Shown here: positions 3,801 through 9,800 of the stretch, one piece after another | Layout: every line of letters starts with the position of its first letter | Numbering within the stretch: the first letter of the stretch is position 1 | Origin: Gigantopelta aegis | Lineage: Eukaryota; Mollusca; Gastropoda; Neomphalida; Peltospiridae | NCBI RefSeq assembly: GCF_016097555.1 | Contig: NC_054707.1 | Span: forward strand, 50,178,943 to 50,242,942 | Direction: 5' to 3' | DNA: 64,000 nucleotides | Notes under the pieces: generated by a model | What the model saw: only the letters and a program-made list of their open reading frames with translations | Told to the model about the DNA's origin: nothing | Databases searched by the model: none | Made by a program: the position numbers and the translations under genes

Positions 3801-6800
3801 GAGAGAGAGAGAGAGAGAGAGAGAGAGAGAGAGAGAGAGAGAGAGAGACAGAGACAGAGACAGAGACAGAGAGACAGAGAGAGGGAGAGAGAGAGGGGGA
3901 GGGAATATAGAGAGAGAGGAAGGAAGGAAGGAAATCGTTTATTTAATGCCAAACTTAACACATTTTATTTACGGTTATATGGCATCGAGTATATGGTTAA
4001 GGATCACAGGAAACCCGCTGTCACCACTTTTCAAGTAGCAGCAAGGGTTTTTTATATGCACCATCTCATAGGATAGCACATACCACAGCATTAAACAAAT
4101 GATTTACCACTGGGCTACACCTCGCCCCAGAGAGAAAGAGAGAGGAGGGAGAGGAAGGAGGGAGACAGGGAGGGTGAAAGTCAGTGAGAGAGAGAGAGAG
4201 AGAAAGAAAGAAAGAGAGAGAGAGAGAGAGAGAGAGTGTGTGTGTGCATGGCTGTGTGTGTGTGTGTGAGTATGAGTATGTGTGTGGTTATAGATTTGCT
4301 TCATTTTATATTGTAGATATTCATGAATTCTTATCTGTAACAGTAATAGTTAAGTTTGAAAAACACAACGACAAAATTATATGGTGTATTTTTGGAGCTA
4401 GATCCCAGATGTTCTGTTCGAAATTAACCACATTACAAATCTACAAATCTAATGTGAGATAACGTCAATGACTATCAAATTTAGTTTCAAATTAACTATG
4501 TCAGAGGTGCAACAGGATGATTACAAACCTTTGTTAGGTCCATCCCTAGTTTGAGCTGTGACAGGAGATGCAGGATGATTACAAACCTTTGTTAGGTCCA
4601 TCCCTAGTTTGAGCTGTGACAGGAGATGCAGGATAATTACAAACCTTTGTTAGGTCCATCCCTAGTTTGAGCTGTGACAGGAGATGCAGGATAATTACAA
4701 ACCTTAGTAAGGTCCATCCCTAGTTTGAGCTGTGACAGGAGATGCAGGATAATTACAAACCTTTGTTAGGTCCATCCCTAGTTTGAGTTGTGACAGGAGA
4801 TGCAGGATGATTACAAACCTTTGTTAGGTCCATCCCTAGTTTGAGCTGTGACAGGAGATGATTACAAACCTTTGTTAGGTCCATCCCTAGTTTGAGCTGT
4901 GACAGGAGATGCAGGATGATTACAAACCTTTGTTAGGTCCATCCCTAGTTTGAGCTGTGACAGGAGATGCAGGATAATTACAAACCTTTGTTAGGTCCAT
5001 CCCTAGTTTGAGTTGTGACAGGAGATGCAGGATAATTACAAACCTTAGTAAGGTCCATCCCTAGTTTGAGCTGTGACAGGAGATGCAGGATAATTACAAA
5101 CCTTTGTTAGGTCCATCCCTAGTTTGAGTTGTGACAGGAGATGCAGGATAATTACAAACCTTAGTAAGGTCCATCCCTAGTTTGAGCTGTGACAGGAGAT
5201 GCAGGATAATTACAAACCTTTGTTAGGTCCATCCCTAGTTTGAGTTGTGACAGGAGATGCAGGATAATTACAAACCTTAGTAAGGTCCATCCCTAGTTTG
5301 AGTTGTGACAGGAGATGCAGGATAATTACAAACCTTAGTAAGGTCCATCCCTAGTTTGAGCTGTGACAGGAGATGCAGGATAATTACAAACCTTAGTAAG
5401 GTCCATCCCTAGTTTGAGTTGTGACAGGAGATGATTACAAACCTTTTTTAAGTCCATCCCTAGTTTGAGCTGTGACAGGAGATGCAGGATGATTACAAAC
5501 CTTAGTAAGGTCCATCCCTAGTTTGAGTTGTGACAGGAGATGATTACAAACCTTTTTTAAGTCGATCCCTAGTTTGAGCTGTGACAGGAGATGATTACAA
5601 ACCTTTGTTAGGTCCATCCCTAGTTTGAGCTGTGACAGGAGATGATTACAAACCTTTTTTAAGTCCATCCCTAGTTTGAGCTGTGATAGGAGATGATTAC
5701 AAACCTTTGTTAGGTCCATCCCTAGTTTGAGCTGTGACAGGAGATGATTACAAACCTTTGTTAGGTCCATCCCTAGTTTGAGTTGTGACAGGAGATGATT
5801 ACAAACCTTTTTTAAGTCGATCCCTAGTTTGAGCTGTGACAGGAGATGATTACAAACCTTTGTTAGGTCCATCCCTAGTTTGAGCTGTGACAGGAGATGA
5901 TTACAAACCTTTTTTAAGTCCATCCCTAGTTTGAGCTGTGATAGGAGATGATTACAAACCTTTGTTAGGTCCATCCCTAGTTTGAGCTGTGACAGGAGAT
6001 GATTACAAACCTTTGTTAGGTCCATCCCTAGTTTGAGTTGTGACAGGAGATGATTACAAACCTTTTTTAAGTCGATCCCTAGTTTGAGCTGTGACAGGAG
6101 ATGATTACAAACCTTTGTTAGGTCCATCCCTAGTTTGAGTTGTGACAGGAGATGATTACAAACCTTTTTTAAGTCCATCCCTAGTTTGAGCTGTGACAGG
6201 AGATGCAGGATGATTACAAACCTTAGTAAGGTCCATCCCTAGTTTGAGTTGTGACAGGAGATGATTACAAACCTTTTTAAGTCCATCCCTAGTTTGAGCT
6301 GTGACAGGAGATGCAGGATGATTACAAACCTTAGTTAGGTCCATCCCTAGTTTGAGTTGTGACAGGAGATGATTACAAACCTTTGTTAGGTCCATCCCTA
6401 GTTTGAGTTGTGACAGGAGATGATTACAAACCTTTGTTAGGTCCATCCCTAGTTTGAGCTGTGATAGGAGATGATTACAAACCTTTGTTAGGTCCATCCC
6501 TAGTTTGAGCTGTGATAGGAGATGATTACAAACCTTTGTTAGGTCCATCCCTAGTTTGAGTTGTGACAGGAGATGATTACAAACCTTTGTTAGGTCCATC
6601 CCTAGTTTGAGCTGTGACAGGAGATGATTACAAACCTTTGTTAGGTCCATCCCTAGTTTGAGTTGTGACAGGAGATGATTACAAACCTTTGTTAGGTCCA
6701 TCCCTAGTTTGAGCTGTGACAGGAGATGATTACAAACCTTTGTTAGGTCCATCCCTAGTTTGAGCTGTGATAGGAGATGATTACAAACCTTTGTTAGGTC

Positions 6801-9800
6801 CATCCCTAGTTTGAGCTGTGATAGGAGATGATTACAAACCTTTGTTAGGTCCAGGTCCATCCCTAGTTTGAGCTGTGATAGGAGATGCAGGATGATTACA
6901 AACCTTAGTAAGGTCCATCCCTAGTTTGAGTTGTGACAGGAGATGATTACAAACCTTTTTTAAGTCCATCCCTAGTTTGAGCTGTGACAGGAGATGATTA
7001 CAAACCTTTGTTAGGTCCATCCCTAGTTTGAGTTGTGACAGGAGATGATTACAAACCTTTTTTAAGTCCATCCCTAGTTTGAGCTGTGACAGGAGATGCA
7101 GGATGATTACAAACCTTAGTAAGGTCCATCCCTAGTTTGAGTTGTGACAGGAGATGATTACAAACCTTTTTTAAGTCCATCCCTAGTTTGAGCTGTGACA
7201 GGAGATGCAGGATGATTACAAACCTTAGTAAGGTCCATCCCTAGTTTGAGTTGTGACAGGAGATGATTACAAACCTTTTTTAAGTCGATCCCTAGTTTGA
7301 GCTGTGACAGGAGATGATTACAAACCTTTGTTAGGTCCATCCCTAGTTTGAGTTGTGACAGGAGATGATTACAAACCTTTGTTAGGTCCATCCCTAGTTT
7401 GAGTTGTGACAGGAGATGATTACAAACCTTTGTTAGGTCCATCCCTAGTTTGAGCTGTGATAGGAGATGATTACAAACCTTTGTTAGGTCCATCCCTAGT
7501 TTGAGCTGTGACAGGAGATGATTACAAACCTTTGTTAGGTCCATCCCTAGTTTGAGCTGTGACAGGAGATGATTACAAACCTTTGTTAGGTCCATCCCTA
7601 GTTTGAGCTGTGATAGGAGATGATTACAAACCTTTGTTAGGTCCATCCCTAGTTTGAGCTGTGATAGGAGATGATTACAAACCTTTTTTAAGTCCATTCC
7701 TAGTTTGAGCTGTGACAGGAGATGCAGGATGATTACAAACCTTAGTAAGGTCCATCCCTAGTTTGAGTTGTGACAGGAGATGATTACAAACCTTTTTTAA
7801 GTCCATCCCTAGTTTGAGCTGTGACAGGAGATGCAGGATGATTACAAACCTTAGTAAGGTCCATCCCTAGTTTGAGTTGTGACAGGAGATGATTACAAAC
7901 CTTTTTTAAGTCGATCCCTAGTTTGAGCTGTGACAGGAGATGATTACAAACCTTTGTTAGGTCCATCCCTAGTTTGAGTTGTGACAGGAGATGATTACAA
8001 ACCTTTGTTAGGTCCATCCCTAGTTTGAGCTGTGACAGGAGATGATTACAAACCTTTGTTAGGTCCATCCCTAGTTTGAGTTGTGACAAGAGATGATTAC
8101 AAACCTTTGTTAGGTCCATCCCTAGTTTGAGTTGTGACAGGAGATGATTACAAACCTTTGTTAGGTCCATCCCTAGTTTGAGCTGTGACAGGAGATGATT
8201 ACAAACCTTTGTTAGGTCCATCCCTAGTTTGAGCTGTGACAGGAGATGCAGGATGATGCTCTTGTGTTCCTCCACCTCTCCCAGCTCCGAGTCCTTGTAC
8301 TCCTCCTCATCCGTCATCTCATCCTCGTGATTGATCGGACCTACAACGTCAGACAAACTCTAGTGTTATTACATACCCATTTAATCTTACTTTTGAGAGT
8401 ACTGCTAAAGCAGGGTACCTACATAATTTTCAAGTTTTGTTGTATACAAGGGCCTCCTGCCACCCCCAATAGCCGCGCATTCACCTCCAAATCCCAGAAT
8501 CAACCTATTGTTACATTAAATATACTAGTATATGTGTGTACATTTCAACTGATTAATGTTTTCTCCCTGTGTTCCAGTTACTGTTAATATTGTCTAGTCA
8601 TAAAAACTACAAATGTTCATTGTAGTCCTTGGGGAAAACATTTGGCATTATGTTGTATTATAAATACATGTAAAAGCTACATGCTGAATATAAAGATTAT
8701 GGTTTACAAATATAACAATACTTGTATATAGATTAAGTCTGGTATAACCTTCTACTCTTGACTTCTAGTGTTTTGGGTGCTATATGTAGATCATATAAAC
8801 ATGACATTTTCCTTGGTGGTACAATTTGATAAAGTGACCAGAATATTTCTCAATAAAAATACAGTCAAACCTGTCCTAGCAGCCACCTGTACTCAGCGGT
8901 CACCTGTCTTAAGCGGCCACTTTTTCCCCTCCAAAACGATTTATAATGTAAATGCACCTGTAATAAGCGGTCACCTGTTTAATGCGGCCAGCAGCCACCT
9001 AAATCGGATCCCAAATCACTAAAATACCTGTATTAAGCGGCCACAGTAAAGTTATATAAAAGAGATATTTTAACAACAACAACGATAAGGTGCAGCAAAT
9101 AACCGGTCTTCACACCTTCAGGAATAGATTCACTTACTAGGACAATACACTGCATGAAGTAGGAATTAAATAATTATATGGAAAAAGAAAACAAACTGTT
9201 AATTTAATACATTCCATTTGCATTATTTCTGAAGGAGACGATATGTCAAATGTTGATTTATAGTCACCTGTGAAGCACGCATCCATTGACTAACAGTACA
9301 GACGGTAAACCAGAAACAACAACAGATGTTTTAAAAACTATGTATGTGGCAACCTGTATTCAGCTGCCACCTGTCTTAAGCGTCCACTTTTATCTACTCC
9401 CTTGTGTGACCGCTTAAGACAGGTTTGACTGTAGATTGTTTTTGAAACATACACTAGAAATCATTATTAGCCATTATTCAATAGTCATGAAAAAGACAAA
9501 GAATTCAAAACACCAATATCTTAGGTTTATTACATTTTTACACGATTCTGTATACAGGGGACAATATTTTTAAATCTTAGGTAACCGGAAGTCTGTTCAC
9601 GTGAGTTTTACTTAGGTAACCGATTGTTCGGTTACGTGAATATAGTTCTCATAACCGATGAGTTAGGCCTACCTAATCCTAAAACACTTGAACTACGGTT
9701 CTGTGCTACATTGATGGTTCAAATGTATTTAAAAACAAACTGATTTTTACTTTCATTACTCATATATGGTACTTTTAATTTTAGAATGTAATTGCTCAAC

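What the first reader, a model, noticed from the sequence alone, without database searches (positions are those of the whole stretch)
4514..8340. Minisatellite of about 70 copies built from an exon end and its own splice donor (exon 12)
The unit is not anonymous intron DNA. It is the last 41-48 bp of the conserved ORD exon plus 10 intron bases, so the array multiplies a coding segment together with a 5' splice site (AAG/gtttgt). The true exon end is the outermost unit. The 58-bp units retain more exon sequence and look ancestral; the 51-bp form lost 7 bp. How the spliceosome picks the right donor among about 70 near-identical sites is an open question.
Basis: seen in the sequence. Interest (0 to 1): 0.92.

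Follow-up and report, generated by a model that had tools for sequence, protein, structure and literature searches.

The report
Minisatellite of seventy duplicated splice donors
In a lipid-transfer gene of a deep-sea vent snail, the end of one exon and its splice signal have been copied about seventy times in a row into the following intron, a large example of a little-known kind of repeat already described in lancelets.

Summary
On the minus strand of an ORP11-like gene of the vent snail Gigantopelta aegis, the exon at 8340-8207 ends AAG|GTTTGT. It is followed by 69 tandem units (47 of 51 bp, 20 of 58, one of 57, one of 64), each a copy of the exon's end plus its donor: 70 donors in all. A 9-bp direct repeat, ATCATCCTG, in exon and intron explains the 58-bp unit; the 51-bp unit lost 7 bp.

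The public gene model uses the outermost donor. Donors 1-8 keep the frame; donors 9-70 give a premature stop. No RNA was examined.

The same gene has a second donor array, an acceptor array, a 66-bp repeat over a 32-nt exon, and an acceptor duplication with a SINE-like fragment. Elsewhere an SH2 exon carries eight donors.

The kind is known: amphioxus "mirages", minisatellites over exon-intron boundaries, reported not to disturb splicing. This is a very large new member in a mollusc, most likely neutral. One oddity: 8 of 10 variable exon-derived positions are synonymous (P=0.0017), a bias not clear in two other arrays.

The parts
8207..8340 (-). 13th located coding exon of the ORP11-like gene (134 nt; ...GMDLTK), source of the repeat; its donor AAG|GTTTGT at 8207/8206
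4529..8206 (-). donor array: 69 units (47x51, 20x58, 1x57, 1x64 bp), each ending AAG and followed by GTTTGT, i.e. 69 extra donors
8249..8257 (-). exon copy of the 9-bp direct repeat ATCATCCTG (founding breakpoint)
4513..4521 (-). intron copy of ATCATCCTG at the distal end of the array (founding breakpoint)
3457..3542 (-). next exon ([20 protein letters not shown]...), acceptor TTTTTCAG; joined to the outermost donor in P0001
13527..14355 (-). second donor array: 12 donors GTGAGTGTTA (11 after GAG, one after GAA), ten 70-bp units and one of 63, built on the end of exon 14436-14356; what reads like a decayed further copy lies at the distal end
14356..14436 (-). exon [27 protein letters not shown], source of the second array
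18334..18718 (-). acceptor array: 7 units of 55 bp, 6 ending TTCCAG and one TTCCAA; the innermost AG is the acceptor of exon 18333-18252
16613..16775 (-). 66-bp repeat (2.5 copies) over the 32-nt exon 16683-16652 ([10 protein letters not shown]); the exon end and its donor occur twice

Best explanation
A boundary minisatellite ('mirage'). A 9-bp direct repeat shared by the exon and the first bases of the intron let replication slippage or unequal exchange duplicate 58 bp across the exon-intron junction. Because the duplicate carries the exon end and the donor, the outermost copy stays a correct exon end and every further copy becomes intron. Unequal exchange then amplified it to 69 units, one lineage after losing 7 bp. 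Splicing most likely uses the outermost donor, because the true exon (134 nt, own upstream acceptor) is the first and shortest exon that can be defined and its donor is transcribed first. Use of donors 2-8 would add 17-residue in-frame repeats; use of donors 9-70 would give a premature stop. Shown: anatomy, breakpoints, frame consequences, the gene model's choice. Inferred: slippage/exchange as the process, exon definition as the reason, near-neutrality.
Against: No RNA was examined; P0001 is a predicted model. Substitutions in the exon-derived part look filtered for coding: 8 of 10 synonymous, P=0.0017, which plain neutrality does not predict. Splice sites are over-represented as founders in this gene: 5 of 9 arrays against 0.58 expected, P about 1e-4 (a test devised after seeing the data), which neutrality alone does not explain either.
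Confidence: 0.82

Rival explanations
1. The array is used: inner donors 2-8 are spliced at some rate and give ORP11 isoforms with 1-7 in-frame copies of [17 protein letters not shown], or units act as 27-nt in-frame micro-exons (cacag|CTCAAACTAGGGATGGACCTAACAAAG|gtttgt), as donors of the human IFI6 (6-16) minisatellite are.
For: The first seven units are all 51 bp and in frame; 43 of 69 units have CAG, hence an AG, 27 nt and a donor; synonymous excess in the array; IFI6 precedent.
Against: No other protein named G. aegis among the 73 listed hits; insertion point in a near-invariant ORD stretch; 26 of 69 units have lost the AG; units beyond the eighth donor cannot be read in frame from this exon, and ATC>ATT occurs only in distal 58-bp units, so translation cannot explain that synonymous change.
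Confidence: 0.1
2. The units pass through the exon: exchange between the exon end and the array keeps moving array variants into the coding copy, where selection removes non-synonymous ones, so the array is a record of accepted exon ends.
For: 8 of 10 substitutions synonymous in the exon frame, against 2 and 0 of 10 in the other two frames; distal as well as proximal units show it.
Against: Only 10 sites, some linked in pairs (C50T with C54A; A52T with A55T), which lowers the number of independent events; the second ORP11 array shows 3 synonymous and 2 non-synonymous changes (read by eye) and the SH2 array 1 synonymous and 3 non-synonymous base changes (by eye); the present exon carries none of the array variants.
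Confidence: 0.2
3. Many donors serve as U1 snRNP landing sites that strengthen the exon or suppress premature polyadenylation in the intron.
For: 70 donors with the same nine bases; none of the 10 variable sites falls in the 9-nt donor core.
Against: Zero of 10 variable sites in the 9-nt core is expected 16% of the time; GTTTGT differs from the donor consensus at +3 and +4 (consensus recalled); another array of the gene multiplies an acceptor instead.
Confidence: 0.04
4. Assembly artefact.
For: One assembly, presumably that of PMC7895826, whose contigs were corrected with short reads (passages); copy number untested.
Against: PacBio library size-selected 8-50 kb, longer than the 3.7-kb array; 19 distinct unit sequences in an ordered pattern, unlike a looped assembly; further arrays of the same kind.
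Confidence: 0.04

Closest known systems
Amphioxus 'mirages' (Adh3, globins BflGb6/BflGb9, TnC, PGBD5)
   Same: Minisatellite-like tandem duplications over exon-intron boundaries, at donors or acceptors, units 10-160 bp, many repeats carrying AG/GT signals (passages of PMC3087553 and PMC3902484)
   Different: There 3 and 6 repeats in two BflGb6 haplotypes and 2-7 in the PGBD5 assemblies; here 69 units and 70 donors, several such arrays in one gene, and a mollusc host; RT-PCR and length instability reported there, not tested here
IFI6 (6-16) minisatellite with multiple splice donors, human
   Same: Repeat units carry splice donors at an exon end (passage of PMC4526556; Turri 1995 known by title only, its text not held)
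   Different: There two downstream units are used and give three mRNAs; here no isoform was found in the protein search and RNA was not examined; the IFI6 unit of about 12 bp is recalled, not read
Intron change by tandem duplication across a boundary (potato RdRp; Rogers AGGT model, ATP2A1; fission yeast 24-nt repeats)
   Same: Tandem duplication that carries splice signals turns exon copies into intron (PMC4974935 abstract and introduction; PMC3629103 passages)
   Different: Those cases make a new intron; here an existing intron is lengthened

Membership tests
Boundary minisatellite ('mirage') | Tandem repeat spanning an exon-intron boundary | tested here: met
Boundary minisatellite ('mirage') | Repeats contain the splice signal of the boundary | tested here: met
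   69 contiguous units between 70 donors AAG|GTTTGT, no gap left by a lost donor
Boundary minisatellite ('mirage') | Minisatellite-size unit (10-160 bp in the amphioxus cases) | tested here: met
   51-64 bp; amphioxus sizes
Boundary minisatellite ('mirage') | Homogenised interior, boundary copy exempt | tested here: met
   repeated multi-unit blocks; the exon copy keeps CCTGCAT, which 47 of 69 units lack
Boundary minisatellite ('mirage') | Normal splicing of the mRNA | tested here: inconclusive
   predicted model joins K352-V353; no RNA
Boundary minisatellite ('mirage') | Length polymorphism or somatic instability | not testable with these tools
   one assembly only
IFI6-type donor minisatellite | Several donors used, giving isoforms | tested here: inconclusive
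   no second protein named G. aegis among the 73 listed; no RNA
Intron gain by tandem duplication | A new intron position | not tested
   the tool states that G000 has no relatives here; gene structures of relatives were not compared
ORP11 (OSBPL11) gene | PH domain + oxysterol-binding domain with EQVSHHPP | tested here: met
   Pfam PH 54-145 and Oxysterol_BP 340-690; EQVSHHPP in the exon at 880-712; that this motif marks the family is recalled

The most novel reading that the evidence does not exclude
Splice boundaries are favoured founding sites of minisatellites across the G. aegis genome (several per gene, hundreds genome-wide), and the exon end keeps exchanging sequence with its array, so that intronic units evolve under coding constraint without being translated.
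Probability: 0.22. Interest if true: 0.72.

Novelty: new member of a known kind. Interest (0 to 1): 0.5.

Why it matters
Seventy near-identical donors in series after one exon are a natural experiment on how the spliceosome chooses among equal 5' splice sites, well beyond the handful of copies in the amphioxus passages seen here. The 9-bp direct repeat gives a concrete origin for this array; the amphioxus authors called the mechanism behind theirs unclear. Five boundary duplications in one gene and one in an SH2-exon gene suggest that mirages are not a cephalochordate peculiarity and may be a common way of changing introns in minisatellite-rich genomes.

Tried and rejected
Chance origin: rejected. 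Function of the invariant donor core: not significant. Translation as the cause of the synonymous excess: distal units cannot be read in frame from this exon. Count of paired donors genome-wide as proof of enrichment: AGGTAAGT pairs 40-70 bp apart gave 1615+1181 matches against 3229+2951 for the reversed pattern (against an enrichment), AGGTGAGT pairs 2067+1859 against 952+1220; the listed places are dominated by a few big arrays, so neither is a clean test. Ten candidate arrays on C1 were fetched, picked by eye from the first places listed (six; four): 1 of 10 has an exon confirmed by homology (L034, SH2 E=3.9e-7); 3 of 10 have a plausible open exon but no Pfam match at the curated cut-off (L032, L038, L040); in 6 of 10 I saw none (L033, L035, L036, L037, L039, L041). 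No conclusion on genome-wide frequency is drawn.

Searches for precedents in print listed no mollusc case that I recognised from titles and abstract starts; I did not open most listed papers, and the library holds open-licence papers only. One search found the genome paper (PMC7895826), of which I saw passages. Residues 556-595 of P0001 were not mapped to an exon. The size comparison of arrays rests on 20 even-spaced 10-kb stretches of one contig, 423 bases of them N.
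Full report
What is there. The window lies in a 1.15-Gb genome at contig C9:50178943-50242942. A protein search with the joined exon translations returned, at 97% identity over the whole query, an NCBI protein of Gigantopelta aegis, 'oxysterol-binding protein-related protein 11-like', on a contig of 84,917,595 bases, the length of C9. So the window is from this vent snail (Gastropoda, Peltospiridae) and the gene is an ORP11-like gene with PH and oxysterol-binding domains. It runs on the minus strand from 28027 to about 4.3 kb beyond the left edge of the window, with at least 21 coding exons located.

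The array. The 13th located exon (8340-8207) ends ...GGGATGGACCTAACAAAG|GTTTGTAATCATC. From 8206 down to 4529 follow 69 units, each ending AAG and followed by GTTTGT: 70 donors with the exon's own. Units are 51 (47), 58 (20), 57 (1) and 64 bp (1). After the last donor the intron reads GTTTGTAATCATCCTGTTGCACC. ATCATCCTG also begins the last 51 bases of the exon; with the array taken out, the two copies stand 58 bases apart. A duplication between these 9-bp repeats gives the 58-bp unit base for base. Deleting 7 bp between the two CATC of CATCCTGCATC gives the 51-bp unit. 15 of the 20 58-bp units lie among the last 17 units; the seven units next to the exon are all 51 bp. Nineteen distinct unit sequences occur, in an order with repeated blocks of up to six units, the usual trace of unequal exchange.

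Consequences for the mRNA. The 51-bp unit is 17 codons ([17 protein letters not shown]) and stays open. A script that spliced each of the 70 donors to the next exon found that donors 1-8 keep the frame without a stop and donors 9-70 all give a stop within the array or the next exon. The NCBI protein joins K352 to V353, the outermost donor. It is the only hit named as G. aegis, with one member sequence, among 73 proteins at E<=1e-200. K352 lies 12 residues into the Pfam ORD match (340-690), in a stretch nearly invariant between P0001 and 13 relatives, so inserted units should be harmful. The protein is a prediction and no RNA was examined.

Not alone. Exon 14436-14356 is followed by 12 donors GTGAGTGTTA at 14355-13592, ten 70-bp units and one of 63, with what reads like a decayed copy beyond. 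Exon 18333-18252 is preceded by seven 55-bp units, six ending TTCCAG, the innermost AG being the acceptor. A 66-bp repeat at 16613-16775 covers the 32-nt exon 16683-16652; its end and donor occur twice. In L009 (8169-8326), left of the window, a unit of about 70 bp made of a SINE-like fragment (by eye) plus the first exon bases duplicates the acceptor of the exon encoding residues 502-555. So 5 of the 9 arrays of unit >=25 bp in the gene body are founded on a splice site, against 0.58 expected if founders fell at random (P about 1e-4). The test was devised after seeing the data, and the 66-bp and 29-bp repeats may be one array. Minisatellites as such are common: 35 in 200 kb sampled from C9, 11 with five or more copies, 4 over 1 kb, none over 3 kb.

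Elsewhere in the genome. Two pattern scans for paired consensus donors gave thousands of matches, but one reversed control is larger than its scan and the other about half of it, so they show candidates only. Of ten candidates fetched, one is confirmed: C1:5856853 (L034), where an exon matching the SH2 domain (Pfam E=3.9e-7; Fyn, Yes and Src chains in the PDB) is followed by seven units of 91 or 77 bp, eight donors in all. Three more are plausible; in six I saw no exon (see Tried and rejected).

How it most likely works. Shown: the direct repeat, the unit, the order, the frames, the gene model. Inferred: slippage or unequal exchange made and amplified it; the outermost donor wins because the 134-nt exon, with its own acceptor, is defined first, while every alternative is longer and built on the same donor sequence; inner donors matter little. 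For a boundary duplication the outermost copy remains a correct exon end, which is why such an array can grow at all.

What does not fit. In the 51 exon-derived columns 10 substitutions are seen over 69 units; 8 are synonymous in the exon's frame, P=0.0017 given the observed transitions and transversions, against 2 and 0 of 10 in the other frames. Translation of the array cannot explain it, since distal units cannot be read in frame from this exon. Exchange through the exon end could. But the second ORP11 array has 3 synonymous and 2 non-synonymous changes (my reading) and the SH2 array 1 and 3 (my reading), so it may be chance or peculiar to this array. The invariance of the donor core is no evidence by itself (P=0.16).

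What is known. [quoted passage not shown] Passages of PMC3902484 add PGBD5 and TnC. Human IFI6 uses two downstream repeat units as donors (passage of PMC4526556). PMC4974935 (abstract and introduction) and PMC3629103 (passages) treat intron gain by tandem duplication over splice signals. The present array meets the structural definition of a mirage; splicing and instability could not be tested. It differs in size, in number per gene and in host.

Verdict. Observation confirmed, reading largely right, kind already known. It is a very large member of a little-known class, with a clear origin and a testable question attached.

Noticed in passing
42893-56548: A segment of about 4.5 kb appears tandemly repeated three times (98.9% identity over a 9.1-kb self-alignment shifted by one copy).
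   Followed up: partly
56109-62292: 103-bp satellite, 60 copies at about 98%; the same unit occurs in 4.3 copies at 46990-47429 and 51550-51989.
   Followed up: partly
L009 4992-5636 (left of the window): A 27-bp x 24 array lies shortly behind the stop codon of the gene, perhaps in the 3' UTR.
   Followed up: no
window 181-480, 15340-15700, 17370-17600, 19880-20160 and others: A widespread SINE-like element (ggaaatgttttatttaacgacgcactcaacacattttatttacggttatatgg...), seen by eye, recurs in the introns; a fragment of it forms the acceptor duplication in L009.
   Followed up: partly
G000:C1:5856853-5857448 (L034): SH2-encoding exon followed by seven 91/77-bp units, each with its donor.
   Followed up: yes
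8869-9420: Degenerate repeats of 'cacctgtcttaagcggccac' type in the intron upstream of the exon (TRF row 8869-8920, rest by eye).
   Followed up: no
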